From a virus, in the IMG/VR virus record IMGVR_UViG_3300048591_000595, positions 1 to 29,870 of that record: DNA of 29,870 nucleotides; one strand, 5' to 3'. Position 1 is the first letter of the stretch. Every line of letters starts with the position of its first letter. Below the pieces are notes generated by a model. The model did not search any database, was not told where the DNA came from, and saw only the letters and a list, made by a program, of their open reading frames with translations. A program made the position numbers and the translations under genes. Below are positions 1 to 29,815 of the stretch, piece by piece.

Positions 1-59
1 TTAAAGATACTTTTTTCTCAACTATTATAACGAGCCAAGAATAATGAGAATTTTTTCCA

Positions 60-72
60 TTTAGTTTGAGAA
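60..72 (+). repeat. Right-end transposase-binding repeat (R1-like)
   Basis: TTTAGTTTGAGAA is the exact reverse complement of the TTCTCAAACTAAA found three times at the other extremity. Single inverted copies near both tips are what transposase A binding sites should look like. A degenerate TTCTCAACTATT at 15-26 lies outside the candidate terminus and may be chance or host DNA. Confidence 0.7.
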
Positions 73-1804: not shown

Positions 1805-1810
1805 ATTTTC

Positions 1811-1936
1811 CTATTTGATTAGAATTTCGCAATTGCTACTATAATTATCATTTAGTTGCATTTTTGCCATAATGGCAAGGATAAAGCTCCCTTCGATATT
1901 ATTCATCAATAATCTCATTAAGATTATTGCTTTCAT
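1811..1936 (-). other. TR-to-RT spacer with an optional 41-codon ORF
   Basis: The spacer between TR and the reverse transcriptase contains an open frame starting ATG at 1936 and ending TAG at 1811, just before the reverse transcriptase ribosome site. It has no clear Shine-Dalgarno sequence. In known DGRs this region is part of the structured RNA that primes cDNA synthesis, so I favour RNA function over coding. Confidence 0.35.
1864..1878. other. Palindrome TTGCCAT-A-ATGGCAA in the TR-to-RT spacer
   Basis: A perfect 7-bp inverted repeat with a one-base centre lies 73 bases downstream of TR on the coding strand. It is too tight for an RNA hairpin without opening inner pairs, so it may be a protein site or a DNA cruciform. 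It could also be part of the folded DGR RNA. Confidence 0.5.
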
Positions 1937-1950
1937 TAATTGTTAATCGG

Positions 1951-2065
1951 AGTCGGAGGCGCACGGAAACATTTCTATTGCTATTAGTCCGATTATTATT
2001 CAGATTGACAACCGAAACGCCGCTATTGCTAGTATTATTGAACGAACCGCCAACAAGCGCACACA
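1951..2065 (-). repeat. DGR template repeat (TR)
   Basis: These 115 bases match the VR at 2500-2614 at a constant offset of 549. Read on the minus strand, the TR would encode the same C-A-L-V-G-G-S-F... segment but with AAT (Asn) at every diversified codon: ten AAT codons, eight of them altered in VR. Core differences lie at 1953, 1972, 1978, 1993, 1996, 1999, 2000, 2027, 2034 and 2039. All except 2034 are T on the plus strand, which is A in the template sense. The GC-rich, invariant end (1954-1970) is the expected IMH* segment. TR begins 10 bases after the avd stop codon. Confidence 0.96.
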
Positions 2066-2075
2066 TTTTTAAGCC

Positions 2076-2435
2076 CTACCCTTTGGAACAATCATCATTT
2101 CCTAATTCCCTTCTAATCCACGATCCAATCATTCTTCCAACTTCATCAATTCTTTTCTGAGATTCATTTAGCTTTTTATCATCAATATATTTTAAACTAT
2201 GTGATAAATAGATCAACTGTCTCAGAACTTCATGCTTAACATTCATATCACTGAGCGTTGTCTTTTTATGAAATTTTTTATTAACAGTTACGACGTGTTC
2301 GAATATATCATAACCCAGTTCCCTTATTTTGTTTGCTAATAAATATTTTTCGTGCTTGGGAAATTGTTTCAACATGACATTCACATAAATTATCATGTCC
2401 TGCACTTTCTTTTGTATTAATAGATATTCAGACAC
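2076..2435 (-). CDS. avd: Avd-like DGR accessory variability determinant (119 aa)
   Basis: Avd proteins are small, basic four-helix-bundle subunits that form a ring, bind the reverse transcriptase and DGR RNA, and are required for mutagenic retrohoming. This protein has the family-like N-terminal pattern, an I-Q-K helix followed by K-Q-F-P-K-H-E-K-Y-L-L (residues 23-33) and N-K-I-R-E-L-G, then two further amphipathic helices. Its length is typical. The start is a GTG at 2435 without a strong ribosome site. The next ATG (residue 14) would remove the conserved first helix, so GTG is preferred. It sits between the VR-bearing target gene and TR, the classical position. Confidence 0.9.
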   Translation of the reverse strand: MSEYLLIQKKVQDMIIYVNVMLKQFPKHEKYLLANKIRELGYDIFEHVVTVNKKFHKKTTLSDMNVKHEVLRQLIYLSHSLKYIDDKKLNESQKRIDEVGRMIGSWIRRELGNDDCSKG

Positions 2436-2483
2436 TTTTTTGTTTTTTTATGATTAATTCAATTATGCTCACTATCGTTCGCT

Positions 2484-10502: not shown

Positions 10503-12673
10503 AACGCACCGCTCGAAAGTTCTGCCAGCCCAATAGATGTTAAACGCTCTGCAGAATATTTATCAAATACAATCTGATTAGGTCTTTGTTTAATCGCATC
10601 TGCTAAAACTCTTATCTCTTTTACAATCGCTAAATCGTTAAAGCTGTACACATTATTTCTTAAAGAGTTTTCAACTGCCATTTTAGTCTGCGTTACCACC
10701 TGCGCCCAGCCTTGCGCATAGTCCTGCATAGGTGCAATAATCTCGATTCCATTCTCACCTACTACCGTGCCGCCTTTAGCGAAACCTTTCATAGAAGTAT
10801 CAGTAGCGGAAATCTTTGCTACGTTAGCTAAACCTGTAGCTATCGTAGTAGCTGCCAGAATACCTCCGAAAAGAGGACCAGCGCCTACGGGCGGAGGTGC
10901 GAATGCGGCTGTTGCTGCTTTATAAGTTTCTATCAATGTTTGCGAAATACTAAGTGCCTTATAAGCTGCCGTCTGCTTACCAAAAAGATTAGCCGTCATT
11001 CCGAGTGATTGAGTAACTGCATTGATTTCAGTTTCTGCTTTAGCAGCTTCAAATTGTTTCTTCTTTTCTAAAGATTCTTGTTCTAAATCGTTTCGTCTCT
11101 GATCGTATGCCTGCGATAATGCAAGAAGCATCTCTTGAGAGTTTTCAAAAATCGATACCTTTTCTATTTCCTTATCATACCAGATGTCGAGTTCCTGCTG
11201 TGCAGAAAGTTTTAAGTATTCGTTTTTATCTCCAAGAAGTATGTCGTCAAGAGCTTCTGTTTCAGGCATAGAAAAATTATCTTCTGCAAATGTAGGCATT
11301 TCCGGCTTTGGTTCTTTTACTACTTGTTTATTGCTAAGCAATGATGAAAGTCTTTCTTGCTCTTTTAAATTTTTTATATGCTTTTCAGAGCCAGCAATTA
11401 ATAAACCTTCTGCTTCTTGAAGTTCTTTAATTTTTTCTTTTACTTGTGTAACCGTCATTCCCATACCGGCTACAACCTTATCCGCTGCATTCAAATTATC
11501 GAGATGTACTTTTAACCAGTTTGTACTTTCTCCTTTTTTATCTGAAATTTCATCTGCGATGTTTCTTGCGCCAAAACCGGACTTATCCCAGTTCGGGTAG
11601 CTTTTATCAACTGTCTTTCTATGATTGATTACAGCAGTAGCGTTTTCGTTAATATTTCCTGTCATTAAATAAATTGCATAAGCGGCAGCAGTAAGACCTA
11701 GAATTAACCACCCCACCGGACCAAGCGAAAATTCTAAAGCGATTATACTTTTCCCAAGTGCGGCAATAGAAGGAATAAGAGAATTATAAATTGTTGTTGC
11801 AATTCCCATTAAGCCGGTTACTCTTAAAGTTACCGCCACTGCACCAAGAGAAATGAATAGACCAATTACACCGCTTAACACAGGTGAAAGTTGATTCAAA
11901 GCTCCAACTAAACTAGCGATAGCAGATGAAAGAGGTCTTAGACCGTAATCTAAAAGTTCACCAATATTTTCCCTCATATCACCGATTGCATTGTTCATCT
12001 TAGCCATAGCACCTGTCGATGACTCACCCATAGCTATCGCTTGCCCACCAATGCTTTTATTTAGCATCTCGAGTACTTTATTCAAATCACCACTTTTCAA
12101 GACTGTTTCATCTAGTCCTTTCACGTACCGCTTAATCATAGTCGCATCGCCTGCAAAAAGATCACCCATCACACGTGTAGCACCACTTAAATCAGTGCCC
12201 ATAATGGTAGCCAAGTTCGCAGCTTGCAAAGTTGCTTCTTTTGTTTGTTCTACTGTAAGTCCCATCGCCAGGAGCATAGCCATACTGCTTTCAGTAACCT
12301 CATCTCCATAGATAGTTGTAGCTTGCAACTCTGCCGCATATTCTACCAATATGTCAGAATTTTCTTTTGTAAACTGACCTGATTGTTTAAGGGCTGTATT
12401 GAGTTTAACAAGTGCAACTTCTTGTTCCTGATATGCTTTTATTGATTCGCCAAAGTTCTGTTGTAATGTGCCCCATACTTCTTTCACTCCTTGAATAATT
12501 TCACGAGCATTATTGAACCCCTGCGAAATCGAAGTGGTTAAATCCGTAACGTCTTGTTTGCCATACTTGAAACTTTTGTACAGTTCCTTTACATTCTCAT
12601 CTGTAAGGTCAATCGCTGCATTAGCTTCCTTGCCATCAATTATTAATTTTATTTTTATTTCATTCGTAGGCAA
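10499..12673 (-). CDS. Tape measure protein (724 aa)
   Basis: Tape measure proteins set tail length and help DNA ejection. The N-terminal third is long, helical and Ala/Gln-rich. Residues ~250-345 hold two or three hydrophobic segments (including V-G-W-L-I-L-G-L), and charged coiled coils and an Ala/Gly-rich hydrophobic stretch follow. It lies directly after the frameshifted chaperone genes, as in lambda-type tails. The start is TTG at 12673 with AGGGAT upstream; no in-frame ATG occurs for about 130 codons, so the TTG start is well supported. By the usual ~0.15 nm per residue, the tail would be about 110 nm (inference). Confidence 0.9.
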   Translation of the reverse strand: MPTNEIKIKLIIDGKEANAAIDLTDENVKELYKSFKYGKQDVTDLTTSISQGFNNAREIIQGVKEVWGTLQQNFGESIKAYQEQEVALVKLNTALKQSGQFTKENSDILVEYAAELQATTIYGDEVTESSMAMLLAMGLTVEQTKEATLQAANLATIMGTDLSGATRVMGDLFAGDATMIKRYVKGLDETVLKSGDLNKVLEMLNKSIGGQAIAMGESSTGAMAKMNNAIGDMRENIGELLDYGLRPLSSAIASLVGALNQLSPVLSGVIGLFISLGAVAVTLRVTGLMGIATTIYNSLIPSIAALGKSIIALEFSLGPVGWLILGLTAAAYAIYLMTGNINENATAVINHRKTVDKSYPNWDKSGFGARNIADEISDKKGESTNWLKVHLDNLNAADKVVAGMGMTVTQVKEKIKELQEAEGLLIAGSEKHIKNLKEQERLSSLLSNKQVVKEPKPEMPTFAEDNFSMPETEALDDILLGDKNEYLKLSAQQELDIWYDKEIEKVSIFENSQEMLLALSQAYDQRRNDLEQESLEKKKQFEAAKAETEINAVTQSLGMTANLFGKQTAAYKALSISQTLIETYKAATAAFAPPPVGAGPLFGGILAATTIATGLANVAKISATDTSMKGFAKGGTVVGENGIEIIAPMQDYAQGWAQVVTQTKMAVENSLRNNVYSFNDLAIVKEIRVLADAIKQRPNQIVFDKYSAERLTSIGLAELSSGAF

Positions 12674-16885: not shown

Positions 16886-17395
16886 CTAAGAATCAAAAGT
16901 AACTGGATTTGTGATGCCTGCATTAGCGGAATGAGTTAATACTGCATCGAGAACCGGATTGCCAGTTTTAGTTTGAGACTCAGTTTTTGCATTTTCTTTC
17001 TTAGTATTATCAACGGATTTAAGAATCGAGGTTGCCTTTTGTGCAGACTCATAGTCTTTAGCAAATAAACTATTCCAATATGGTTTGTCTGCTTCTGTAA
17101 TTTTTTTATCAGCAAATAATCTATTCACAGCTTCGCTTACTTTCGTTTCTCTTTCTGTTTTAACTCTCTGCTCTTCCGATTGCATTGCTGCTTCTCTTGC
17201 AGTTTGCTCTTTTGCTAGTGCATCTTGCAGAGCCTTGACGTGAGCAGTAAGAGCTGATAGTCTGTCGTCATCTGCCTGTACCTGTTTCACGACTGGCTTT
17301 TCTTCTGTCGTTACTTCATCTTTAAGAGAGTCCTCAATTTCCTGCTCCCTATCCGGGAAAAGCTTTTTTAATAATTCCGCTATCTTATTTTTCAT
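16886..17395 (-). CDS. Head scaffold protein (169 aa)
   Basis: It is highly charged and helical with a long coiled coil (residues ~40-100, rich in Glu, Gln, Ala and Lys). A segment A-V-N-R-L-F-A-D-K-K-I-T-E-A-D-K-P-Y-W follows, which resembles the C-terminal scaffold part of Mu-like protease/scaffold (gpI-type) proteins. The serine-protease domain of those proteins is absent, so this is a stand-alone scaffold. It is the first gene of the late minus operon. The ATG at 17395 has AAGG upstream. Confidence 0.8.
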   Translation of the reverse strand: MKNKIAELLKKLFPDREQEIEDSLKDEVTTEEKPVVKQVQADDDRLSALTAHVKALQDALAKEQTAREAAMQSEEQRVKTERETKVSEAVNRLFADKKITEADKPYWNSLFAKDYESAQKATSILKSVDNTKKENAKTESQTKTGNPVLDAVLTHSANAGITNPVTFDS

Positions 17396-17531
17396 AAAAG
17401 ACCTTGTTCTATTTATTGATATGAATTATGTAACAAAAATAAAAATCATGTAAATAGAAAAAGTTTATATCCGCATACAAAAATAATTTTCAATAACCAT
17501 TCATAATTTTACACAAACACAAGGATTGACT
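17396..17531. promoter_or_regulatory. Divergent late promoter region
   Basis: Both late blocks start here. A minus-strand sigma70-like pair is visible: TTACAT (17453-17448), 17-base spacer, CATAAT (17430-17425). On the plus strand only a -10-like CATAAT (17502-17507) is seen, with no good -35. Arms TTCTATTTA (17407-17415) and TAAATAGAA (17451-17459) form a 9-bp inverted repeat around the minus promoter and could bind a late activator. Confidence 0.5.
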
Positions 17532-17873
17532 ATGTTCGAGTTAGAAGAGATTGAGCTTCTGCTATCCGCGCAAGCTAAAAATATGTTCGCTGATATTGAT
17601 TTATTCAAACAGCTTTCATCAAGTACAACAGAGATAATCATTAATTACACTCACATAAATAAGGAAGATAAACCCGAATGGGCTAAGATTCCTTTTGTTT
17701 TCATTATAGAATATCTTGCCGCAAATCGCATCAATGCAACTTCGCCGGAGCGGTTAAAATTAATTCAAACGAATTATGAAACTGCTTTATTGTTACTCAA
17801 AGATAATATTAATACACAATTTATTGCAGGTAAGACAGGCAGCATTGGAGGCTTGTACGATGTTGACATATAG
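17532..17873 (+). CDS. Mu gp36-like (DUF1320-type) head-tail connector candidate (113 aa)
   Basis: It is a helical protein whose C-terminal half (ending L-I-Q-T-N-Y-E-T-A-L then G-K-T-G-S-I-G-G-L) recalls Mu gp36/DUF1320 neck proteins. The identity rests on pattern and position, paired with a gp37-like gene. I choose the ATG at 17532, seven bases after AAGG, over the TTG at 17526. It is the first gene of the plus block and overlaps the next by 14 bases. Confidence 0.6.
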   Translation: MFELEEIELLLSAQAKNMFADIDLFKQLSSSTTEIIINYTHINKEDKPEWAKIPFVFIIEYLAANRINATSPERLKLIQTNYETALLLLKDNINTQFIAGKTGSIGGLYDVDI

Positions 17874-18309
17874 AGACGTAAGCGATCTATTAAATAAATA
17901 TTTAACTATAAAATTAGTTTCTGCAAAAGTTGATTTCGGTAAATATGGAGAGCTTCCGATTGAGACTCCTTCCGTGCTTCTCTATGTAGAGCCGGAGGGC
18001 AAAAAAGATACAAATGCAAACACATTTACTTTCCGCAAATGGGCGAAGGTAAATATATTCGTATGCGAGGGCGGTGAAGAGATTCCTCACGAAGCTGCTG
18101 CTAAGGCGGTAAAGCTTGCAGAAAAAGTTGAAAAATTAATATCTGAGTTTCCTCAGTTCGCAGACGAGAACAAATTAAATATTAACTCGATGCCTACGAC
18201 TATTCAGGCGACAGATCAACCAATGTCTTTTGACGGATATTATAGCGACATAGCAGTTGTTAATTTAGAATTTTTACTAACGTACTCGGCACATTATGAA
18301 GCAGAATGA
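17860..18309 (+). CDS. Mu gp37-like (DUF1834-type) protein candidate (149 aa)
   Basis: This alpha/beta protein follows the gp36-like gene, as gp37 does in Mu. Gp37-type proteins are thought to act in tail or neck completion. The ATG at 17860 is preceded by GGAGG, eight bases away; an upstream in-frame ATG at 17776 lies deep inside the previous gene and is rejected. The C-terminal beta strands end at V-N-L-E-F-L-L-T-Y. It overlaps the small terminase by 14 bases. Confidence 0.55.
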   Translation: MLTYRDVSDLLNKYLTIKLVSAKVDFGKYGELPIETPSVLLYVEPEGKKDTNANTFTFRKWAKVNIFVCEGGEEIPHEAAAKAVKLAEKVEKLISEFPQFADENKLNINSMPTTIQATDQPMSFDGYYSDIAVVNLEFLLTYSAHYEAE

Positions 18310-18787
18310 AATATCAAAATCAGAAATAAGCAAGTCTATTGCCCTTTATAAATTAGAAAATCCTGAATCTTCAATTAGTGATATTGCTAAGAAATTCAAG
18401 GTCAAGGATCATGTAGCGAGATATGCAATAGATAAGTATGCAGAAGACACTCAGTTTTTGAAGTTGAATAAAAAATCTAAAATACGAGCTTCTCGGATTA
18501 TAGCAGATATTTCTTCAGATACAGAGCTTCTTAGGAAACAATTAAGTTTCGTCATAGCGCAGCTTGAAACAAACGATAGTATGCCTCTTACAGCAAGAGT
18601 TGAGTTCTTAACTCGAATTATTCGCATCAAGGTTCAACTCAGCAATATCGAACTTCAAAATCATCTTAAAAAAGCAGACGCAACGATAATCGCCGCAATA
18701 ATCAAAAGATTTTTGCCTGATGCAACCAATGAGGATATTATAAAAATCTATAACGAAGAACTCATAAAATCCAAAAACGAGGATTAA
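18296..18787 (+). CDS. Small terminase subunit (163 aa)
   Basis: The N-terminal ~50 residues carry a helix-turn-helix (S-S-I-S-D-I-A-K-K-F-K-V, then H-V-A-R-Y-A-I-D). The rest is helical and probably oligomerises. The second half resembles the region Mu gp27-type (DUF3486) proteins use before the large terminase. It would bind phage ends (pac) for headful packaging from the left end. The ATG at 18296 overlaps the preceding gene. Confidence 0.75.
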   Translation: MKQNEISKSEISKSIALYKLENPESSISDIAKKFKVKDHVARYAIDKYAEDTQFLKLNKKSKIRASRIIADISSDTELLRKQLSFVIAQLETNDSMPLTARVEFLTRIIRIKVQLSNIELQNHLKKADATIIAAIIKRFLPDATNEDIIKIYNEELIKSKNED

Positions 18788-18925
18788 ATGAGTACCGCTC
18801 ACGATTTAATACCCTTTAAAAACCGTTTAATGGCGTTCAGGATTAATTATCTCGTCCAAATAGGTAGTTTCACCTGCATCACGAATTTAAGAGCCGTTAA
18901 AAACGATTTTCAGGAGAATCCATAA
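18788..18925 (+). CDS. Small unknown protein between the terminase genes (45 aa)
   Basis: This short ORF starts with ATG directly after the small-terminase stop (TAA-ATG) and ends TAA directly before the large-terminase ATG. GAGG lies five bases before its start. An open frame filling the gap exactly, with a good ribosome site, argues that it is real. It starts M-S-T-A-H-D-L-I-P and ends D-F-Q-E-N-P. It is not recognised. Its DNA also holds two copies of a TTTAA-centred motif shared with the element's left end. Confidence 0.6.
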   Translation: MSTAHDLIPFKNRLMAFRINYLVQIGSFTCITNLRAVKNDFQENP

Positions 18926-20521
18926 ATGGAAAATTTCAGCCAAATCGATTTTACTTTTATCAATTTTTTAAAGCAGGCAGAAGAGGAAAAGCTACAAAAA
19001 GAAAAAGAGGAAAGGAGTAAACAATTTCTTCCTTTCCCTGAAAACGAAAGAAGCGAAACTTCTATATCAAATCGCGTTAGGAAATCATTGAAAGATTTTT
19101 GGTTTTTCGATAAGACCTATTTCCCTAAAGAGCTCTATGGAGAATATTTTGAGCCGAATCGTATGTTAAAAAGTATCGTAAAACTTTCAGAAATTCCCGG
19201 ATTTCACTTAGTACTCGGTCCAAGAAAGCACGGCAAAACTGTACTTGCAAAAAAATTAATGATCTGGAAGTTATTAACTAATCGTTCAAAAGTTGCCGGC
19301 ATTTACGCCGAGACTCTTACTAAAAGCTCTGCAATTCTTAAAGATATATTCACTTTGATTTTCACTAACGAATATATCATGCACGATTGGAAAGCAAATT
19401 TCTCAGAAGCCAATAGTAACCAAGTCGCTTTTAAAATTGACTTGCCTCTTGAGTTTTCAGAACTCAATAAGACGTCTCGATTCTGCGCTGCATTTTCGGA
19501 AGGAAGATCGGTAAGAGGTTATATCCGCTTATTTGGAAGACCTGAGTTCATCATCGGCGATGACATAGAAACTTTAGAATCTTCGTTCACTCCTGCATCA
19601 GTCAATCTAAGAAACGATAAATTGATGGAGGCATTTCACTCGCTTTCCGATAACGGTATATTCTTATCGTTAGGTAATGATTTCAATAATTCCTCTTTTA
19701 TGCACAAATTTAGACTTGATGCAGAGCAGGGACTACTGCACAAAAATTATACAGTCCAAGTTTTCAAAGCGTGGCAACACAATCAGCCTCTTTGGCATCA
19801 GAGATGGAAAGCCAAAACAGAAAATGAATTACGTTCTATTATAGCACCGAAAAGTGAATCAGACTGGCAAGGTAACTACCAGCAAAACCCGATTCCGCCG
19901 GAAGGTTTTTTCTTTTTGCAACAACACTACATCGAATATTCATCGTTACCTAATGATTTAAGAGCTGTAATTTATTGCGACCCTAATCTTTCCAAGAAAG
20001 GGAAAGGTGATACTACTGCAATAACTACTCTAGCATATTCTCCAAAAACGAATATCTATTATATACTTAATTCAATATGTAGAAGTTTCAGCGATGCTAA
20101 TCTGTTATTAGATACACTACTTAAACTCAAAAACGAAACTAAGAATGTCTATGCTATCGGATTCGATGGAAACGTTGCGCAAGAAAGCACGTGGACTCAG
20201 TTCGTAAGGAATTGGTGTGTAATTAATAAATCTGCTTTCCCTGTTATCGAATACAAAAGTTATCGAGTAAATGATCTTGCAAAAAATGTTCAGCTCGTTT
20301 ATTCAGAAAATAGAATTCAATTCCCTGTAAATTTTGCAAAATCACAAGACGGTGAAAATTACTTAAGCCAAATATTCGCATTTACTGGACAGAAAAAAGG
20401 TTCATTGGACGATGCCCCCGATTCACTTATTTGTGCATTTGAATTTTTGCATGAAAGAAAATTAGCAAGAAATTCTTTTCAGCCAATAAAAACAATTAAA
20501 GATTATTATTCAATTATGTAG
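18926..20521 (+). CDS. Large terminase subunit, Mu gp28-like (531 aa)
   Basis: This is the packaging motor ATPase plus nuclease. The Walker A-like motif G-P-R-K-H-G-K-T is at 98-105, and Walker B F-I-I-G-D-D-I-E at 208-215. The RNase H-fold nuclease has acidic residues at D352 (C-D-P), D414 (G-F-D-G) and D495/D496/D499 (L-D-D-A-P-D). Its length is normal. The ATG at 18926 has AGGAG upstream inside the 45-codon gene. It forms a unit with the small terminase and portal. In transposable phages packaging starts near the left element end and takes flanking host DNA. Confidence 0.93.
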   Translation: MENFSQIDFTFINFLKQAEEEKLQKEKEERSKQFLPFPENERSETSISNRVRKSLKDFWFFDKTYFPKELYGEYFEPNRMLKSIVKLSEIPGFHLVLGPRKHGKTVLAKKLMIWKLLTNRSKVAGIYAETLTKSSAILKDIFTLIFTNEYIMHDWKANFSEANSNQVAFKIDLPLEFSELNKTSRFCAAFSEGRSVRGYIRLFGRPEFIIGDDIETLESSFTPASVNLRNDKLMEAFHSLSDNGIFLSLGNDFNNSSFMHKFRLDAEQGLLHKNYTVQVFKAWQHNQPLWHQRWKAKTENELRSIIAPKSESDWQGNYQQNPIPPEGFFFLQQHYIEYSSLPNDLRAVIYCDPNLSKKGKGDTTAITTLAYSPKTNIYYILNSICRSFSDANLLLDTLLKLKNETKNVYAIGFDGNVAQESTWTQFVRNWCVINKSAFPVIEYKSYRVNDLAKNVQLVYSENRIQFPVNFAKSQDGENYLSQIFAFTGQKKGSLDDAPDSLICAFEFLHERKLARNSFQPIKTIKDYYSIM

Positions 20522-20528
20522 GTAGGTT

Positions 20529-21662
20529 ATGAAAGTATATCCAAGTTTATCAGAATACTTTAAATATGTGCAGTCGGCAGAGACCGAAGACCCAAGGGCG
20601 CGTGGTATCAAAAAACTTTTCGATACTCTTAAAAAAGCAATGCAAATAAATTCAAGAATTGTAGGACATTTTTCTACTCGTACAACAGCACTAAGTTCGT
20701 TCGACTGGAACTTAATTGGAGATTTTAATAAAATCGAGGAAATAATAAACAGGAATAAAACGCTTATTAATTATCTGATAAATAATCACACCTACACGGC
20801 GATGTTTGGTGCTACTCTATATAAATTATGTATAATAAATAACGAGCTTGGAAGTCAGCTCTTTGTTGAGAAGAAATATGACAATTCGGAGTTCGATTAT
20901 AACCTCGATTCTTTGTATCTATACGATACGAACGGAAGCTTCACGGAAGAAATAAGCTTGATTGAAAATGAATATCATTTGCTTAACACAATACAATATT
21001 ATTCAAAAGGCGGAATCTTGCGTTCTATAATGCCGATTGAAATAATTAGATTCGATATGATATTAGAAAATGCTAACTGGCTTAGGAAGCTTAAAGGAAT
21101 TTTGCAAATTGTTAATAAAGGCAGTTCACCTGAGAACGAGCGTGCAGCAGAGCAGGCAGCCCAGACGGCAGTTAGCAATAACTACCTGATTAGTGATGAC
21201 CTCATAGAGTTCAAGTTAAACGAAATCGCCGGCTCAGGCGGAACTGTATTCAAAGACTTCATAGACTTTATTAACAAAGAAATTTCAATTGCAATTCTCG
21301 GACAAGCGAATACATCCGAGCTTCCGAACGGTGGAGGATCTCGTGCAGCTCTGCAAATCCAATCCTTGATATCCGCAGATATTTTTTATGCCGACATGAT
21401 CAGAATGGAAGAATTTATTGACAAGATTCTTTTACTTGACTACAAAAATAACTATGATAAGTTAGCTGTAATAGCCCCCTACAAATTTAAATTCAGTATA
21501 GCAGAAGAGCAGGATATTGAAAGGAATGCAGCAGCTCTAAAAATCATAAATGAATTTTTACCGGTATTGAAAAAAGAAGCTTATCAATTTATTAATTTTA
21601 CAGTCCCTTCAAAAACTGATTTGGAAGAGGATATATTACAGCCTAATAAGTCAGCGTTTTAA
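20529..21662 (+). CDS. Portal protein, Mu gp29/DUF935-like (377 aa)
   Basis: It forms the dodecameric head vertex for DNA passage. The key segment is I-S-I-A-I-L-G-Q-A-N-T-S (about residues 250-261) followed by N-G-G-G-S-R-A-A, which matches the DUF935 pattern of a Gly-Gln-Thr core followed by G-G-S-R-A. The protein is shorter than Mu gp29 (about 510 residues), so the C-terminal domain is reduced. It starts 7 bases after the terminase stop with AGGTAGGTT before the ATG at 20529. Confidence 0.87.
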   Translation: MKVYPSLSEYFKYVQSAETEDPRARGIKKLFDTLKKAMQINSRIVGHFSTRTTALSSFDWNLIGDFNKIEEIINRNKTLINYLINNHTYTAMFGATLYKLCIINNELGSQLFVEKKYDNSEFDYNLDSLYLYDTNGSFTEEISLIENEYHLLNTIQYYSKGGILRSIMPIEIIRFDMILENANWLRKLKGILQIVNKGSSPENERAAEQAAQTAVSNNYLISDDLIEFKLNEIAGSGGTVFKDFIDFINKEISIAILGQANTSELPNGGGSRAALQIQSLISADIFYADMIRMEEFIDKILLLDYKNNYDKLAVIAPYKFKFSIAEEQDIERNAAALKIINEFLPVLKKEAYQFINFTVPSKTDLEEDILQPNKSAF

Positions 21663-21664
21663 AA

Positions 21665-22198
21665 ATGAAAAAGCTTTTACAAATAGCAGGTATCCGAGTA
21701 ATTGCCTTAATCGAGGAAAATATAAAAAAAGGAGTCGGGTATGACGGAACTAAATTCGCTTATTCAGACAAGCCCTTTTATAGACCATACGATCATAATT
21801 TATTAAAAAAACTTGGTGGTAAAAACGGCTTAGGAAAATATTATAATGTCGTTACTTCTAAGACAGGCAAGCTCGGCATGATCATTCTTGGCGGCTACAA
21901 AGAATATAAGAGGAAAGTTTATCCGTCTGCTTTTAATCATTTTCTAACAGTGAGCGGTAAGATGCTTCGCTCAATGAATCTAAAAGTAAATGATAGCGAA
22001 GCAATAATATCATTTACAGGAGAAGACAATATCAATAAGGCGTTTTGGTTAAATGTTAGCGGAGCAGGCAGATCGAGAAAACTATGGAAATTCTTAGGTA
22101 TTAGTAATAACCAGTTAAAAGAACTTTCAAAAGATTTGACAGATGAGTTTTATAAAATTACAGCGAAAGAGCTTGCGAAAATCACAAGAAAATCTTAA
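21665..22198 (+). CDS. Virion morphogenesis protein, Mu gpG-like (177 aa)
   Basis: It resembles the phage virion-morphogenesis family (Mu gpG/P2 gpS) that completes tails or joins head and tail: a helical N-terminus, K-P-F-Y-R-P-Y near residue 38, and a central S-G-K-M-L-R-S-M segment followed by an A-F-W-L-N region. The ATG at 21665 begins 2 bases after the portal stop. It ends at 22198, with the next opposing gene ending at 22199, so no terminator separates the two convergent units. Confidence 0.72.
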   Translation: MKKLLQIAGIRVIALIEENIKKGVGYDGTKFAYSDKPFYRPYDHNLLKKLGGKNGLGKYYNVVTSKTGKLGMIILGGYKEYKRKVYPSAFNHFLTVSGKMLRSMNLKVNDSEAIISFTGEDNINKAFWLNVSGAGRSRKLWKFLGISNNQLKELSKDLTDEFYKITAKELAKITRKS

Positions 22199-22861
22199 TC
22201 ACTTCTTTATCACCGGCACCCAGCGATGCCTGCAATTATAGCCACCGCAAAATGCAAATGCCGGCTGTCCAAATTGATTCTTCATTTCACTTACTTCGCG
22301 GAATGAATATTCCTTGCCTAAATGCCTGATACAGAATTCGCGTTCTGTATCAGGTCCTTCATACCTTAAAATTAAATCGTCTTTAAGAACTTCAAAATCA
22401 GAGAAGCGTTTTATATTATCGAGAGCTGCTTTAGTAGTTTCTATCTCTGTTCTAATATGTCGTTCTTCAATTTTTAATTTAGTGAGGGCTTTCCTTGCTA
22501 TATCTTCCCATTTTTTGTCTGTCTTCTCTGATTCTTGTAAGCTCTTATTAATTACGTCTTGCGCCTTTTTTGAACTGCCGGATAATTTAGAATCGGCTCG
22601 ATTGAAAATATTATTGTATTGCTCTTTAATGAAAATTTCTACTTCCGATTTTCTATCATTGCTAAAACTTTTCAATAAGTCGCTTTCAACACCTTTTAAT
22701 ATTGTGTTCAAGTTAGACTTATAGTCCTTCCATAAACCGCCTGAACGTTTAATTAACAACTTAATTTCTTCGTAGCCGGCAGTTTTTAATTTATCAGCTT
22801 TGCCCTCTAAGAAATAAGTTTTAATTATTTTCTTAATTCGTACTTCGAGAAGTTTATTCAT
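22199..22861 (-). CDS. Mu F/SPP1 gp7-like minor head protein (220 aa)
   Basis: The C-terminus has F-C-I-R-H then G-K-E-Y-S and F-C-G-G-Y-N-C-R-H-R-W, the Cys/His pattern found at the end of Mu F-type minor head proteins. These bind the portal and may enter the cell with DNA. The N-terminal two-thirds is helical and charged. I take the ATG at 22861 (after GAGGATAATA) because the upstream ATG at 22891 lies in the previous gene. It is the last gene of the early operon and faces the portal gene on the opposite strand, an unusual separation from its expected partner. Confidence 0.72.
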   Translation of the reverse strand: MNKLLEVRIKKIIKTYFLEGKADKLKTAGYEEIKLLIKRSGGLWKDYKSNLNTILKGVESDLLKSFSNDRKSEVEIFIKEQYNNIFNRADSKLSGSSKKAQDVINKSLQESEKTDKKWEDIARKALTKLKIEERHIRTEIETTKAALDNIKRFSDFEVLKDDLILRYEGPDTEREFCIRHLGKEYSFREVSEMKNQFGQPAFAFCGGYNCRHRWVPVIKK

Positions 22862-23105
22862 TATTATCCTCAAAAAGATATAGCTTGCCATCGCTATCTT
22901 TTTCGTATCGCTTCATATTTTCCTTATTGAATGTAATATCTCCGCCCCAAGAAGTTATTGTGAAGACTCTTTTCCCGCAAGCTGTGCAAATAACAATTCG
23001 GGTATCGTGATCTTCGCTTACTATCCACTTACCCTCTTTCCTGTTCCTATTTCTAAAAACATTCATTACGTCATGCTTATCATTACCGCATATCTTGCAA
23101 ATCAT
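22854..23105 (-). CDS. Zinc-ribbon protein (83 aa)
   Basis: Two C-x-x-C pairs (C3/C6 and C40/C43) predict a zinc ribbon, with basic residues between them (R-N-R-N-R-K). The function is unknown; a DNA-binding or regulatory role is possible. It is coupled by ATGA to the gene before it and overlaps the next gene's start by 8 bases. Being in the early operon next to GemA, it is a candidate for the missing middle/late regulator, which is inference only. Confidence 0.72.
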   Translation of the reverse strand: MICKICGNDKHDVMNVFRNRNRKEGKWIVSEDHDTRIVICTACGKRVFTITSWGGDITFNKENMKRYEKDSDGKLYLFEDNNE

Positions 23106-23386
23106 TTTTTGCCCGTTAAATTTTTTAATAAAATAAAAAAATTTCTATAAGCAGTTAAGTTATCTAATATATCAAAGATAAAAAGAATTTCCTCGTAATC
23201 GAGTTGAGGCAAAAGTTTTTGAATACTTTCAGACTTTTCTTTTACTTCTTTTTCTCTTTCAATTTTTGCTTCCTTAATAAGAATATCTGAATAATGTCCC
23301 ATTGCAATCTCGCTTAGTTTTATTTGTGCATTGTGCGCTTTTTCAATTAGATGGTCTGCCTGAATGAGCAGTTTTGATTTTTTCAA
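23102..23386 (-). CDS. Unknown helical early protein (94 aa)
   Basis: It is not recognised. It is an all-helical charged protein with a Glu/Lys-rich middle (E-K-E-V-K-E-K-S-E) and a hydrophobic C-terminal helix that is not a clear membrane segment. It is coupled by ATGA at both ends with GemA and the zinc-ribbon gene, so it is surely translated as part of the early operon. Confidence 0.7.
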   Translation of the reverse strand: MKKSKLLIQADHLIEKAHNAQIKLSEIAMGHYSDILIKEAKIEREKEVKEKSESIQKLLPQLDYEEILFIFDILDNLTAYRNFFILLKNLTGKK

Positions 23387-23835
23387 TTCTTCGCCTTTGC
23401 TTTTACCGATTTCGACATAGCTTCGAGAGCTGCAAGAATTGTATTCGCATTCTTGTTCGAGAGAAATATGATGTGCGATATTCCTACACGATTGAAGATA
23501 AATTTTTGTAAAGAGTCATCTGTCTTTAAGTCGCTTATTTCTCTCCATATTGCCTCAATCTTTCTAAGTTTTGAAGATGAAGCCATTTTCTTATCTCTTC
23601 CATCAAGCTCAGAGTATTTGTTCTTACCGCTTGCCGATACATTTTTTATTTTTGATACTACTTTAAATCCTGCTTTAATGAATTTTTCTATTAATAAATT
23701 AGCCTGAGAATATGTGAGGTCTTTAGAAGACCTCACACCAAGATTGTATAATAATTCCCGATAGCTCTCTTCATCAATGCCAAGCTGCTTTTTAGCAATA
23801 TGTATCTTCGCAATCTGAGACCTAATCGCTTTCAT
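23383..23835 (-). CDS. gemA: GemA (Mu gp16) homologue, DUF1018 (150 aa)
   Basis: Mu GemA changes host gene expression and DNA topology. Here I-A-K-I-H-I-A-K-K-Q-L-G (residues 8-19) then E-E-S-Y-R and a G-x-x-S-S-K-D-L-T stretch match the DUF1018 start well. The second half has W-R-E-I-S-D-L. I choose the ATG at 23835, eight bases after GAGG, over the ATGs at 23856 and 23853. The gene lies downstream of Gam, as in Mu. Confidence 0.88.
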   Translation of the reverse strand: MKAIRSQIAKIHIAKKQLGIDEESYRELLYNLGVRSSKDLTYSQANLLIEKFIKAGFKVVSKIKNVSASGKNKYSELDGRDKKMASSSKLRKIEAIWREISDLKTDDSLQKFIFNRVGISHIIFLSNKNANTILAALEAMSKSVKAKAKN

Positions 23836-24052
23836 TTTCTGTAACCTCAACATCATAGTCTTCGTTAGCGTCTAGATACTCTACAAAGGATGTTACTGAT
23901 GAAACGCAAACATACAATGAACGCTGAATCTTTTCTACTAAATGTAGATCACCTGTTTTATGCAAAACTGAATAATTATCATTTTTGAATTTGCTCATCT
24001 CTTCAGCGATGCGAGATATTTCTTTTTTTATTTCTTCTAATTGCTCTTTCAT
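23822..24052 (-). CDS. Unknown early protein (76 aa)
   Basis: It is not recognised. The N-terminal half is a coiled coil (L-E-E-I-K-K-E-I-S-R-I-A-E-E-M) and the C-terminus is acidic. It is coupled by ATGA to Gam (24049-24052) and overlaps GemA by 14 bases. This suggests joint expression with nuclease inhibition or replication functions. Confidence 0.7.
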   Translation of the reverse strand: MKEQLEEIKKEISRIAEEMSKFKNDNYSVLHKTGDLHLVEKIQRSLYVCVSSVTSFVEYLDANEDYDVEVTENESD

Positions 24053-24567
24053 TTCTCCTCCAAGTTTTCCCAGTTAATTTCGTAACCGAATTTTTCATCT
24101 TGATCAACTCTAAGCCCTACTGCTGCTAATTTTGAGTCGTCAATTTCTTTTGCTGAATAGGCTGTCAATATTGATTCCTTATCGATTTCCTGTTTCGTTC
24201 TAAGAAATTTGTTTTTGAATATTCTTTTAATTAATTCAATACTTGTTTCGATTTTATATTTCTTATTCAACTGAGCTACCTTAGGCGGATTAGTTCTAAA
24301 AAATACTTTACCGAATAGAAGCGTTTTAGTTCTTGCTGCATCGAATAGAGATTTGTTAATTGTGCAATATCCTTCAATCTCTTGTTCTAGCATCTGCTTT
24401 CTTGAACGAAATTCATAAGTTTCGTCATCAAACTTATTTTTAATTTTATTAATACTTTCATTCATCTGCGCTTCTTTAGATGTAAGATAAGTATCACATT
24501 TTGCGATTTCTTTTAAGGTCGTATTTACGTCCTCGAAATCGTAATTTTTTACTGCTGAGTCTTTCAT
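24049..24567 (-). CDS. gam: Gam-like host-nuclease inhibitor (172 aa)
   Basis: Mu Gam binds double-strand DNA ends and protects transposition/packaging ends from RecBCD-type nucleases; it is related to Ku. The long N-terminal helices (residues 15-75) and R-T-K-T-L-L-F-G-K-V-F-F-R (about 79-91) match the Mu Gam family core, with normal length. The ATG at 24567 has AGAGGT upstream. Its place after transposase genes and before GemA is the Mu order. Confidence 0.9.
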   Translation of the reverse strand: MKDSAVKNYDFEDVNTTLKEIAKCDTYLTSKEAQMNESINKIKNKFDDETYEFRSRKQMLEQEIEGYCTINKSLFDAARTKTLLFGKVFFRTNPPKVAQLNKKYKIETSIELIKRIFKNKFLRTKQEIDKESILTAYSAKEIDDSKLAAVGLRVDQDEKFGYEINWENLEEK

Positions 24568-25168: not shown

Positions 25169-26125
25169 CTACATCACAATTGTCTTAGAAGCTTTCAATA
25201 TTATCTCTTCGCTTAGAGGTGATTTATTTATATCGCATAATCTTTTAGAACGATTTAAGAGGCGTTTAAGCACACGTGGATTGCATCTTGAAAGGTCTTT
25301 AAATGCTTTTAATTCGCCGTTAATATTAGGGAATACAGAGGTTACAAAAGAGCGAACATCCTCCTCGCTCATATCCACCATACTGCCTGCATCGTCTTTC
25401 CATTGCCCTAATTTTTTGTACCAAGATACTCTTTGGTATAGTTGTGCGAATTGATTGTTGAATCCTTTTAAGTTGTCTCTAAGAATCGGGAGACCGGTCA
25501 AGATTATTCCCATTGTTCCGTTACCGTTTTCGTCCAGGCAATCGTCATGCAGAGAGCGAATTAAATCAAGCGCTCGATCAGGAAGATATTCTGCCTGATC
25601 AATAATTAATAATCGTTTTGAATTTTTCAATTTGTCGGCTATAAAACTTTTCATATCATGTATGCCGAGAGGTTTAGAACCTCCGAGCCTTTCATAAATA
25701 ACTCTAAAAAGAATTTTTGCACTAAACGATCTGTCGGAAAGAATATATACTACGTCAGGGTGCAGCTCGGCATATTTTAAAGCAGATGTCGATTTGCCGA
25801 CTCCGGGATTCCCTGTAACTACTCCGATTTCACAATAGTGGTGGCATAACCCTGCAATTTCATTGAAGATTCTGAAATTGATTGTTTGAATAAAAGGGAT
25901 GATAATTCGTCCGTTTTTGTCTTCGAGTCTTGCATTCTCTTTAATTAGAAAATCTTTAACTGCATCTTCAATTTTTTTAATTGATTTTTCATCCTTAACA
26001 GGGTACTTTCCTGCAAGCCACTGGCTTAGTGTGGCAGAAGAAAAAGGTAGAGCTTTCGATAAAACATTTTGCGAAATTCCTCTTTCTTTCATAAATTGTT
26101 GTAGTTCTTGGACTAAGTTATTCAT
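25169..26125 (-). CDS. MuB-like transposition target-selection ATPase (318 aa)
   Basis: MuB-type AAA+ ATPases coat target DNA, deliver it to transposase A and give target immunity. An N-terminal helix-turn-helix (residues ~14-40; I-S-Q-N-V-L-S-K-A then S-A-T-L-S-Q-W-L-A-G-K) resembles the MuB N-terminal DNA-binding domain. Walker A is G-N-P-G-V-G-K-S-T (105-113), and Walker B is L-L-I-I-D with D176 followed by Q-A-E. Length is close to MuB (312). The ATG at 26125 has GGAGAAAGC upstream. A hairpin separates it from the A gene. Confidence 0.94.
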   Translation of the reverse strand: MNNLVQELQQFMKERGISQNVLSKALPFSSATLSQWLAGKYPVKDEKSIKKIEDAVKDFLIKENARLEDKNGRIIIPFIQTINFRIFNEIAGLCHHYCEIGVVTGNPGVGKSTSALKYAELHPDVVYILSDRSFSAKILFRVIYERLGGSKPLGIHDMKSFIADKLKNSKRLLIIDQAEYLPDRALDLIRSLHDDCLDENGNGTMGIILTGLPILRDNLKGFNNQFAQLYQRVSWYKKLGQWKDDAGSMVDMSEEDVRSFVTSVFPNINGELKAFKDLSRCNPRVLKRLLNRSKRLCDINKSPLSEEIILKASKTIVM

Positions 26126-26153: not shown

Positions 26154-26185
26154 AAAGCCGATCATTCGTTGTGATCGGCTTTTTT
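26154..26185 (+). terminator. Terminator-like hairpin overlapping the transposase A stop codon
   Basis: An 11-bp perfect stem (AAAGCCGATCA at 26154-26164, TGATCGGCTTT at 26172-26182) with a seven-base loop ends in six T on the plus strand. On the minus strand it is followed by TTTAATTTT, so it could also weaken transcription from A into B. The stem includes the last codons of A. Confidence 0.75.
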
Positions 26186-28243
26186 GTTCTTGGATATGCT
26201 GCGTTCATACTCTTCTTTTTCTATGAGACTAGTAAATATCATTGCTTTTTTATCTATTTTAGGTAAATATTTTTCATCTAAACCGTAAGTACCGGTACGC
26301 TGATAATCCTCTTCAATTTGTTTGACTTCATCAAAATCAGTCCGCATATAAATCGTTAAATCTTCTTTCTGCTCCTGCTCAATATTTCTGCTCGTTAAAG
26401 ATATCCCAAGAGCCAAATTCTCTAAAATTTCGCGTGGATCATAAGAGACGTCAGGGATATAAGAATCAACATTTTTCTTCGTCGCACTCTGCATCTGTAA
26501 GACCTTTTTCAATTGCTCTTTTTCAAGGTCTGTCTTTGCCAGTGCAGCAGTCTTCCATACATTTAGCTCTGCTGTTCCCATGTAGGTGTCATTCTTTGAA
26601 TCGAAGATGTATGCAATCTGAAACTTCTCAATATCTCTGCGCATATAATATCTTTCACCGTTACCTTTTAAAGATTCCATCCAATCCGCATAGTAATGAA
26701 GATTATACCTCGTAGAGATATTGATACCGTTTCTTCCAATTGTGTAGCTCTTTGAACTTCTCATGCAGAGCAATCGAAGTGCATCTTCGCTAACAGTTTT
26801 TCTTACCTTAAATTCTTTCGCCCATACTTGATCTGCGGATTCGCCGTTAAGTTTGCCTTCGCTCTCGTATTTATTGAATACATTATTCCAGAAAAAGTTT
26901 AGGATTTCCGAATATTCTGTAATATCCATAATCTTGTTTCCCTTGATTTCCGCTTGCAATTTTTCAGGTCTCTCTGTAATGTTTCCTCCACGATAGCCCG
27001 GCATCTGTTTATCTAACCACTCTTTCATAACTCGAAATGATCGTTCAATTGTTTTTGATTGCCCTCTGTAAGGTCTACTAAAATGTACAGCAACACCTAA
27101 TCGGTTCATAAGAGATTGAGTGTTCACTTCATCTAATTCTAATTTTCTTTTCTTTTTCCCGCCGGCAAATTCTTTGCACCTGTAGTCTTTTCCATTATCG
27201 ATGTAAATCTCTGCCGGCACTCCATATTTTTCAATTGCAAGCTTAAAAGAATAAAAGATGTCATCACTATCGGGTGCATCTTCATGTACATATATAGATA
27301 GCATCTTTCTAGTCTTCGCATCCGCCCAAAAAGTTATCCAAGGAAATACCGGTTTGCTTTTCGAGTTCCCTTCAAATTTTGTTAATCGTTTAATCTGTTC
27401 CTCTTCCCCGTCCGGAAGCATCCGCATCACCGCCTGATCTGCCTGTCGGTGGTCAGAGAACCAGCATTGACCTGCTCTTATTCCGCTCCAATCACGATCC
27501 GCATAAACCGCATATCTCTTATTCCAATACCTTTCGCCCTTTCGGACTCTCTTAACCGATTGTACCGGTACTCTCTTTGTTAGCTGATTGTAGAACGTAC
27601 TCATACTTGGAAAGTTCTCAGGAATAGCTCCGTAATTTCTTTTAACAGCATTACCATAAGTTTCGAGCCAACAGCTCTTCAGTGTTGGACCGCCCTCTTT
27701 CATATATAAGTTGTAAAAATATTCGTAGTCGCTTGGCTCGATCTTCGTTAGGTCTTTATTCTTTCCGTAACCGGCAAGGAGAGATTGAGCACCTTCATCT
27801 TTATATTTTTTAAGAGCACGGTAATAGCTTTTTAATGAGGTCTTATACTCCGGATATTTTTCATTCCATTGCTTTATAAAAATTTCGAGGTCTTTCCCGG
27901 AGTAACCTCTCGCGCTCTCAATCATTGCAAGATATTTTTTTGCTTTTGTAGTTTTAAATCGCGGCTGCTCGGTGAGTAAGTTTATTTCATCTTCTTGTAA
28001 TCTTCTTTGCGCAAGTTCTTCTGCTCCGATTCTTTTGTAGATCATCAACCTCTTTTCAGGACTCAATGAGTTTATGATTGATTCAGTCTTGAATAGTAAC
28101 TTACATCCTTGCCCGGTTTTACCTTGTTTTGTTATATATTCATAATTATGTTTCGTCTTTTGTATTACTCTTTCCGATACATCCAATAACTTCTGAGCTC
28201 CCTTAGTGTCGATGTATTCTTTATTTATTTCAAGAATTTTCAT
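26162..28243 (-). CDS. MuA-like DDE transposase (693 aa)
   Basis: It catalyses replicative transposition at the end repeats. The catalytic triad is visible: D264 in W-F-S-D-H-R-Q-A-D, D349 in I-Y-I-D-N-G-K-D, and E400 in G-Q-S-K-T-I-E-R-S-F, comparable with MuA D269/D336/E392. The N-terminal region (1-90) has the Mu-type winged-helix DNA-binding segment, and the middle (170-240) the second end-binding domain. The C-terminal ~150 residues should contact B. Length is similar to MuA (663). The ATG at 28243 overlaps the CII-like stop (ATGA). Confidence 0.96.
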   Translation of the reverse strand: MKILEINKEYIDTKGAQKLLDVSERVIQKTKHNYEYITKQGKTGQGCKLLFKTESIINSLSPEKRLMIYKRIGAEELAQRRLQEDEINLLTEQPRFKTTKAKKYLAMIESARGYSGKDLEIFIKQWNEKYPEYKTSLKSYYRALKKYKDEGAQSLLAGYGKNKDLTKIEPSDYEYFYNLYMKEGGPTLKSCWLETYGNAVKRNYGAIPENFPSMSTFYNQLTKRVPVQSVKRVRKGERYWNKRYAVYADRDWSGIRAGQCWFSDHRQADQAVMRMLPDGEEEQIKRLTKFEGNSKSKPVFPWITFWADAKTRKMLSIYVHEDAPDSDDIFYSFKLAIEKYGVPAEIYIDNGKDYRCKEFAGGKKKRKLELDEVNTQSLMNRLGVAVHFSRPYRGQSKTIERSFRVMKEWLDKQMPGYRGGNITERPEKLQAEIKGNKIMDITEYSEILNFFWNNVFNKYESEGKLNGESADQVWAKEFKVRKTVSEDALRLLCMRSSKSYTIGRNGINISTRYNLHYYADWMESLKGNGERYYMRRDIEKFQIAYIFDSKNDTYMGTAELNVWKTAALAKTDLEKEQLKKVLQMQSATKKNVDSYIPDVSYDPREILENLALGISLTSRNIEQEQKEDLTIYMRTDFDEVKQIEEDYQRTGTYGLDEKYLPKIDKKAMIFTSLIEKEEYERSISKNKKADHNE

Positions 28244-29051: not shown

Positions 29052-29402
29052 ATGTCGATAGGTGAAAAGTTAAAAGAATGGGGTAAAGAGAAATATGGTA
29101 ATCTTACTATATTAGCTCAATTACTTGATATAACTCAACCTTCGTTATCTAGATATATTAATAATAAAACTGAACCCGGTGCAGGTATTTTAAAAAAATT
29201 AAAAAAATTAGGGTGTAATATTGATTGGTTATTGTCTGAATCGGCAGATTTACCTCCGCCTCCGGACACGGTAGATCGGATTAAGGAACTTGAGGAGGAA
29301 AATAGAAATCTCCGAGATTATATCGTCAAAATTGATCTCCTCACTCAAGCTGTAAAGGAAAGTAAAGAAAAATTAAAGACCGGTAAAAGACCTTTTAAAT
29401 AG
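29052..29402 (+). CDS. Phage repressor, helix-turn-helix plus coiled coil (116 aa)
   Basis: Residues 18-42 (T-I-L-A-Q-L-L-D-I-T then P-S-L-S-R-Y-I-N-N-K-T) form an XRE-type helix-turn-helix. A C-terminal coiled coil (I-K-E-L-E-E-E-N-R-N-L) probably dimerises it. It lacks the peptidase domain of LexA/CI-type repressors, so RecA-dependent cleavage is unlikely. No Shine-Dalgarno sequence precedes the ATG at 29052; the predicted leader is about 28 bases. A six-codon overlapping uORF starts at 29041. It is divergent from the early operon, as Mu c is. Confidence 0.82.
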   Translation: MSIGEKLKEWGKEKYGNLTILAQLLDITQPSLSRYINNKTEPGAGILKKLKKLGCNIDWLLSESADLPPPPDTVDRIKELEEENRNLRDYIVKIDLLTQAVKESKEKLKTGKRPFK

Positions 29403-29680: not shown

Positions 29681-29815
29681 TTCTCAAACTAAATGAAAAA
29701 GCTATAAAAAGCGTGAAAAATTCTCAAACTAAAAATTTCGCCAAAATAATTGTAACTCATTGCAAACAAACAACTTGCGCCAAATAATTACCTAACACTG
29801 TTTTCTCAAACTAAA
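29681..29815 (-). repeat. Left-end transposase-binding repeats (L1-L3-like)
   Basis: TTCTCAAACTAAA occurs exactly at 29681-29693, 29721-29733 and 29803-29815, all in one orientation, and inverted at 60-72. Spacings (40 and 82 bases) resemble Mu L3-L2-L1 (39 and 105). The flanking bases of the outer copy also match AAAA-x. These are the best candidates for transposase A end sites. Confidence 0.78.

What the first reader, a model, noticed from the sequence alone, without database searches (positions are those of the whole stretch)
17396..22198. Packaging/head block inverted relative to the rest of the phage
Mu-type genomes run essentially one way from early to late. Here terminase, portal and connector genes lie on the opposite strand between early and capsid blocks, diverging from the scaffold-capsid operon. 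The junction of the plus block with the early operon has zero intervening bases (22198/22199), so convergent RNA polymerases may interfere.
Basis: seen in the sequence. Interest (0 to 1): 0.6.

Follow-up and report, generated by a model that had tools for sequence, protein, structure and literature searches.

The report
Phage packaging genes on opposite strand
In this Mu-type bacterial virus the genes for the DNA-packaging motor and neck lie on the opposite strand from its other genes, which is real and long-conserved, but it is a layout already present in isolated phages such as the Bacteroides hankyphage, so it is mostly ordinary.

Summary
A six-gene plus-strand block (neck protein, unnamed gp37-position protein, TerS, TerL, portal, tail-completion protein; 17532-22198) lies between a minus-strand early operon (MuA, MuB, Gam) and the minus-strand scaffold/capsid/tail operon. 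It diverges from the latter and meets the former stop-to-stop at 22198/22199.

It is not an assembly inversion and not peculiar to this phage. Of 40 loci of its TerL family with an identifiable capsid gene (window included), 39 have capsid opposite TerL (34 of 35 TerL clusters at 90% identity). Two of these prophages sit in chromosomal contigs of one Ignavibacteriales genome. The same layout is in annotated phages: Bacteroides hankyphage p00, Porphyromonas phage013a, Elizabethkingia TCUEAP3, Winogradskyella Peternella_1; KS10 has a variant published in 2008. Mu-like colinearity is therefore not the rule for transposable phages.

Most likely working: a ~130-bp divergent late control region drives two late operons outward (orientation shown; promoters and timing inferred). 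Polymerase interference is untested.

Less ordinary: the convergent gene 22199-22891 looks like a MuF minor-head gene at the end of the early operon. In this family it follows the early operon, not the portal, in 16 of 18 testable loci.

The parts
17396..17531 (.). divergent intergenic spacer between the scaffold gene and the first gene of the packaging block; presumed bidirectional late control region
   Evidence: spacer length median 130.5 bp, IQR 102-141, in 32 loci; promoter-like sites not above shuffles
17532..17873 (+). neck/head-tail connector protein, Mu gp36 type (ORF opens at TTG 17526)
   Evidence: AlphaFold model pLDDT 87.7; best VIA-align match 5ydn Mu neck subunit Z 9.6, then JBD30, P74-26 and T7 connectors; hhalign to gp36 set only 8%
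17860..18309 (+). protein in the gp37 position, conserved in the block, function not established
   Evidence: homologues in 18 of 41 loci, all on TerL's strand; hhalign to gp37 set 4.7%
18296..18787 (+). probable terminase small subunit (by position and N-terminal HTH-like match)
   Evidence: homologues in 30 of 41 loci, all on TerL's strand; hhalign weak, HTH only
18926..20521 (+). terminase large subunit
   Evidence: phrog_38 5e-40; 45-55% identical relatives
20529..21662 (+). portal protein
   Evidence: PF06074 Portal_Mu 1.5e-24
21665..22198 (+). tail-completion/neck protein, Mu gpG-like
   Evidence: AlphaFold model pLDDT 94.1; BFVD matches include phage tail completion and virion morphogenesis proteins; hhalign to gpG set 63.7%; no PDB match at E <= 0.001
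22199..22891 (-). MuF-like minor head protein, last gene of the early operon, convergent with the block
   Evidence: homologues L038 and L002 hit PF04233 at 7.4e-5 and 2.3e-4, both below its cut-off; hhalign to MuF set 83.7%; no direct Pfam/PHROG hit for the window protein
16886..17395 (-). scaffold-position protein opening the capsid-tail operon
   Evidence: position; homologues in L002, L010, L037, L040, L041
15704..16654 (-). major capsid protein
   Evidence: phrog_212 7.6e-14
10499..12673 (-). tail tape measure protein
   Evidence: phrog_27166 6.3e-15
23383..23856 (-). GemA
   Evidence: PF06252 3.1e-19
24049..24567 (-). Gam-like end protection protein
   Evidence: phrog_491 6.2e-29
25169..26125 (-). 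MuB-like transposition ATPase
   Evidence: phrog_296 8.7e-58
26162..28243 (-). MuA-like transposase
   Evidence: phrog_310 3.5e-75; PF02914 2e-13
29052..29402 (+). repressor-like HTH protein diverging from the early operon
   Evidence: PF01381 9.5e-7

Best explanation
The window is a near-complete transposable (Mu-type) phage genome, most likely of an Ignavibacteriales host. Its portal-vertex genes (neck, TerS, TerL, portal, tail completion) form a separate late operon read opposite to the capsid-tail operon. This is an inherited layout of the family. Proposed working: after the early minus-strand operon (MuA, MuB, Gam, GemA, MuF-like) has run, a ~130-bp region at 17396-17531 starts two late transcripts outward: capsid and tail leftward on the minus strand, packaging and neck rightward on the plus strand. 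The plus transcript ends against the 3' end of the early operon, which early/late timing makes tolerable. Shown: gene orientations, their conservation in relatives, and the main gene identities (TerL, portal, MCP, MuA, MuB, Gam). Inferred: bidirectional late promoter, timing, tolerance of convergence.
For:: MCP opposite TerL in 39 of 40 loci where MCP was found (41 loci examined, window included), or 34 of 35 TerL clusters at 90%; portal on TerL's strand 39 of 39, gpG-like 34 of 34. Early genes opposite TerL in 15 of 19 loci that show them. Two such prophages lie in 161- and 205-kb contigs of one genome of the Ignavibacteriales order. Same layout in p00, phage013a, TCUEAP3 and Peternella_1 and, by tblastn, in MT835523. 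Scaffold-to-neck spacer narrowly sized: median 130.5 bp, IQR 102-141, n = 32. (passages of PMC12135933): directional RNA-seq on hankyphage, 'all genes were expressed', and most phage proteins found by mass spectrometry in the induced lysate; p00 shares the layout, so the arrangement is compatible with expression.
Against: No promoter was demonstrated: sigma-70-type matches in 15.5-23.5 kb equal shuffles (28 against 25.4, sd 5.1). A candidate operator, ATNCGNAT near the centre of the spacer, was found in 5 of 10 loci used for discovery but in only 2 of 24 new loci (0.76 expected), so it failed as a family-wide signal. In four loci (L010, L039, L052, L056) the early operon runs with the packaging block, so convergence is not obligatory. 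One relative (L054) is colinear throughout.
Confidence: 0.75

Rival explanations
1. The inversion is an assembly or binning artefact of this metagenomic record.
For: The record is a single IMG/VR contig of unknown source.
Against: Independent records share the pattern: of 40 relatives, 39 show an MCP and in 38 of these it is opposite TerL, including chromosomal contigs of 161 and 205 kb; named phage records have it too. No inverted-repeat pair with an arm at each junction.
Confidence: 0.02
2. The block is a switchable segment, like the Mu G segment, present in both orientations.
For: One relative (L054) carries the block in the other relation to the capsid gene.
Against: No invertase-type inverted repeats at the ends. 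In L054 the block has also moved, to a place before a 1582-aa ORF and well downstream of the capsid gene, which a simple flip does not give. No other of the 35 TerL clusters with an MCP shows the other orientation.
Confidence: 0.03
3. Late plus-strand transcription reading past 22198 makes antisense RNA to the MuF-like gene and the early operon, and so helps switch early genes off (the layout is regulatory).
For: Stops abut with no spacer; no terminator-like site listed within 22.15-22.30 kb; folding of the junction is not stronger than shuffles (z +0.75 on plus, -1.21 on minus).
Against: The gap is not conserved (-14 to 4969 bp), and four loci have no convergence.
Confidence: 0.15

Closest known systems
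Bacteroides hankyphage p00 (BK010646) and Porphyromonas phage013a (BK068094)
   Same: MuA/MuB early operon, then TerS-TerL-portal block on the opposite strand, then protease-capsid-tail on the early strand; p00 also carries a diversity-generating retroelement
   Different: in p00 the Mu F-like gene is in the packaging block; in phage013a the annotated adaptor lies between TerL and portal. Here MuF is at the end of the early operon and the neck gene leads the block
Winogradskyella phage Peternella_1 (Winoviridae) and Elizabethkingia phage TCUEAP3
   Same: isolated phages with the same three-block strand pattern
   Different: portal, minor-head and gpG-type genes all within the inverted block; TerL of Peternella only 22% identical
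Burkholderia phage KS10
   Same: TerS-TerL-portal-MuF on the strand opposite to capsid and tail; the authors (PMC2628397, passages read) describe the first ~17 kb as inverted relative to Mu and the head module as interrupted
   Different: block lies outside, left of the repressor, not between early and capsid
Leptospira transposable prophages, TG1/NN/TG2 groups
   Same: PMC8705779 (section 2.5 read): TerS-TerL-Portal block separated from other structural genes
   Different: maps were not held, strand relations not checked here
Escherichia phage Mu
   Same: gene set: MuA, MuB, Gam, GemA, terminase, portal, gpG, gp36, capsid
   Different: packaging, capsid and tail genes on one strand; gp36 and gp37 after capsid

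Membership tests
Transposable (Mu-type) phages | MuA-type DDE transposase with MuB partner | tested here: met
   phrog_310 3.5e-75, phrog_296 8.7e-58; PF02914 2e-13
Transposable (Mu-type) phages | Mu-type portal (gp29), Gam and GemA | tested here: met
   PF06074 1.5e-24, phrog_491 6.2e-29, PF06252 3.1e-19
Transposable (Mu-type) phages | repeated end sites in inverted relation at the two genome ends | tested here: met
   20-nt arms 53-72 and 29681-29700 at 95%; TTCTCAAACTAAA at 29681, 29721, 29803; binding by MuA not tested
Transposable (Mu-type) phages | host DNA at the packaged ends, random insertion with short target duplication | not testable with these tools
   window is a virus record without flanks
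Mu-style colinear late region | packaging, capsid and tail genes on one strand | tested here: not met
Hankyphage-type layout (inverted packaging block between early and capsid) | TerL and portal opposite to both MuA and MCP, and located between them | tested here: met
   compare
Hankyphage-type layout (inverted packaging block between early and capsid) | common descent of the layout with the Bacteroidota phages | tested here: inconclusive
   TerL tree: both clades wholly 'opposite', join unresolved; 3 changes of the label, at least 2 forced by starred branches
Mu G-segment-like invertible element | inverted repeats flanking the segment | tested here: not met
MuF minor head protein (gene 22199-22891) | PF04233 or PF06152 domain | tested here: inconclusive
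   window protein only PF06152 at 0.17; homologues L038 7.4e-5 and L002 2.3e-4 to PF04233, below cut-off; hhalign 83.7%
MuF minor head protein (gene 22199-22891) | gene in the packaging module near portal (85% of 614 phage muf genes have a portal or terminase gene in the vicinity; PMC5576092 passages) | tested here: not met
   opposite strand to portal here; on the early strand in 16 of 18 loci that show both

The most novel reading that the evidence does not exclude
In this Ignavibacteriales-associated family the portal-vertex genes behave as a cassette that flips or moves as a unit, while the minor-head gene MuF has left it and joined the early transposition operon, where it carries variable C-terminal domains in some relatives (CdiA_C in L009). 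A virion or toxin cargo protein would then be made with the transposition proteins rather than with the portal it binds, at a junction where late transcripts of the packaging block run antisense to it.
Probability: 0.3. Interest if true: 0.5.

Novelty: new member of a known kind. Interest (0 to 1): 0.27.

Why it matters
It corrects the assumption that Mu-type phages are colinear: among those read here, packaging opposite to capsid is the rule in Bacteroidota and Ignavibacteriales transposable phages. It gives a comparative set (41 loci) in which capsid-packaging divergence is nearly fixed while early-operon direction is not, which points at the divergent spacer as the late control point. The displaced MuF-like gene would let one ask whether MuF is needed early or simply tolerates early expression.

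Tried and rejected
Assembly inversion: rejected by conservation. Invertible segment: no flanking inverted repeats. Sigma-70-type promoters in the region: not above shuffles. Bacteroidota -7 boxes (motif recalled, not from a call) in the spacers: present in some, a -33/-7 pair only in L009. Shared operator ATNCGNAT: a motif search on six spacers scored above all 12 shuffled sets, but the pattern was in 2 of 24 new loci against 0.76 expected, so it was dropped as a general signal; L050 and L070 do carry it near the spacer's centre. Six loci were skipped in that test for odd spacer length. Terminator at the junction: none listed, folds not unusual. First genome-contig scan with the portal found nothing. 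Search of six records with the window's MuA rang nowhere and shows nothing. phrog_310 found MuA in 12 of 28 virus records; the colinear L054 record was not among them, but its contig has a 613-aa protein related to ORFs in L052, L006, L049 and L047, so 'colinear means not transposing' was not claimed. PDB fold search for the gpG-like model gave nothing at E <= 0.001; sequence searches of PDB for MuF and gpG gave nothing useful. Profile comparisons for gp36, gp37 and TerS were weak. Limits: in the tree the H. pullorum label 'same' rests on position only, since no MCP was matched there, and the count is 3 with or without it; the row for L028 was translated in a wrong frame by me and was dropped by the program. 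Seven of nine genomes found (G163, G199, G236, G279, G338, G368, G401) were not fetched for layout. Loci L042-L046 were fetched and not used. Per-locus counts include near-copies; cluster figures count them once. The gene scan used models seeded from these loci themselves.
Full report
Observation. The block is real. Between a minus-strand scaffold/capsid/tail operon and a minus-strand early operon lie six plus-strand ORFs: 17526 (ATG 17532)-17873, 17776 (ATG 17860)-18309, 18296-18787, 18926-20521, 20529-21662 and 21665-22198. TerL is supported by phrog_38 (5e-40) and the portal by PF06074 Portal_Mu (1.5e-24). The first gene is a neck/connector protein: its AlphaFold model (pLDDT 87.7) aligns best with 5ydn, a Mu neck subunit, at Z 9.6 (rmsd 2.8, 91 residues), followed by connectors of JBD30, P74-26 and T7 (the model is all-helical, so this is to be read with care, and hhalign with the gp36 set gave only 8%). 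The last gene is a tail-completion protein of gpG type by fold (BFVD) and a 63.7% profile match. TerS and the gp37-position protein rest on position and conservation. The plus stop at 22196-22198 and the minus stop at 22199-22201 abut.

What the window is. MuA, MuB, Gam and GemA, a divergent repressor-like gene, and inverted end repeats at 53-72 and 29681-29700 with further copies at 29721 and 29803 make it a near-complete transposable phage. The record is an IMG/VR virus record. Relatives of its TerL at 54-55% identity lie in genomes drawn from the order of a Melioribacteraceae MAG, i.e. Ignavibacteriales (matches in 5 of 146 genomes), which is the basis for the host guess.

Is it an artefact or a family trait? 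TerL relatives were collected from viral and genomic collections. In 41 loci, window included, HMMs seeded from these loci were run on all ORFs. MCP was found in 40; it is opposite TerL in 39 (34 of 35 clusters at 90% TerL identity). Portal is on TerL's strand in 39 of 39 and the gpG-like gene in 34 of 34. Early genes (MuA, MuB or Gam) appear in 19 loci: opposite TerL in 15, on the same strand in 4 (L010, L039, L052, L056). The exception for MCP, L054, is colinear; there the block sits downstream of the capsid gene, before a 1582-aa ORF. So the fixed relation is packaging against capsid, and the early operon's direction is looser.

Known phages. Read from their annotation, hankyphage p00, Porphyromonas phage013a, Elizabethkingia TCUEAP3 and Winogradskyella Peternella_1 have the same three-block strand pattern; the unannotated MT835523 does by tblastn. 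KS10 has packaging opposite to capsid but outside the early region. Mu, BalMu-1, RcapMu, phiRTG5 and D3112 are colinear, as are two Winoviridae records, lotta8-1 and FPSV-S1, in which no MuA is annotated. A Helicobacter pullorum prophage has a longer inverted block. In a TerL tree of 20 rows the label needs 3 changes, at least 2 of them forced by starred branches; whether the window's clade and the Bacteroidota clade share one inversion is unresolved.

Literature. KS10's authors wrote in 2008 that its first ~17 kb appears inverted against Mu and that early genes interrupt the head module (PMC2628397, passages). [quoted passage not shown] The hankyphage transcriptome used directional libraries, and the paper states that all hankyphage genes were expressed (PMC12135933, passages and one section; figures not held). 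Peternella was reported as Mu-like (PMC8776804, passages). A search for papers joining Ignavibacteria with Mu-like or transposable phages found 48 papers with at least 3 of 4 terms; none of the 8 listed holds the word Ignavibacter.

Mechanism. The spacer between the scaffold gene and the neck gene has a median of 130.5 bp (IQR 102-141, n = 32, one of them L054, whose neighbour is probably spurious), which fits a shared divergent late control region. No motif was proven: promoter-like matches equal shuffles, and a candidate operator failed the independent test (2 of 24 against 0.76 expected). Interference at the convergent end is possible, but the distance to the MuF-like gene varies from -14 to 4969 bp in relatives, so close abutment does not look selected.

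The neighbour across the junction. The minus gene 22199-22891 has a conserved FC..H / GGYNCRH signature shared by its family, an 83.7% profile match to MuF proteins, and homologues with weak PF04233 hits; the window protein itself has none at 0.001. In 16 of the 18 loci that show both it and an early gene, it lies on the early strand, including loci where the early operon runs with the packaging block. L060 and L062 (one cluster) are the exceptions, with MuF next to gpG. Published muf genes lie just downstream of portal genes (PMC5576092, passages). In L009 the protein ends in a CdiA_C domain (8.2e-16), a MuF-toxin arrangement of a known kind; the window's copy has no such extension.

Verdict. 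A true, conserved layout, seen here in an apparently unreported host group but of a known kind; ordinary apart from the displaced MuF-like gene.

Noticed in passing
window 773-2614: Diversity-generating retroelement: reverse transcriptase 773-1804 (PF00078 6.5e-22), Avd 2076-2435 (PF22296 2.8e-24), template repeat 1951-2065 and variable repeat 2500-2614 at the end of the tail-fibre gene 2484-5213; 9 of 10 differences are at template adenines.
   Followed up: partly
window 22199-22891; L009 14549-15649: MuF-like gene sits at the end of the early operon rather than beside portal; the L009 homologue carries a CdiA_C toxin-type domain.
   Followed up: partly
window 53-72, 29681-29700, 29721, 29803: Terminal inverted repeats with motif TTTAGTTTGAGAA, one copy on the left and three on the right: candidate transposase end sites.
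   Followed up: no
L054 with L083: The one colinear relative: genes from early to tail on one strand, with the packaging block moved downstream of the capsid gene.
   Followed up: partly
L037 4644-5594: Gene beside the MuF-like gene in an Ignavibacteriales prophage with AP2 domains and HNH-endonuclease family matches, i.e. cargo at the convergent junction.
   Followed up: no
L025 36659-38386 (NC_030945): BalMu-1, a colinear transposable phage, is also annotated with a retroelement Avd and reverse transcriptase, so the retroelement does not track the inverted layout.
   Followed up: no
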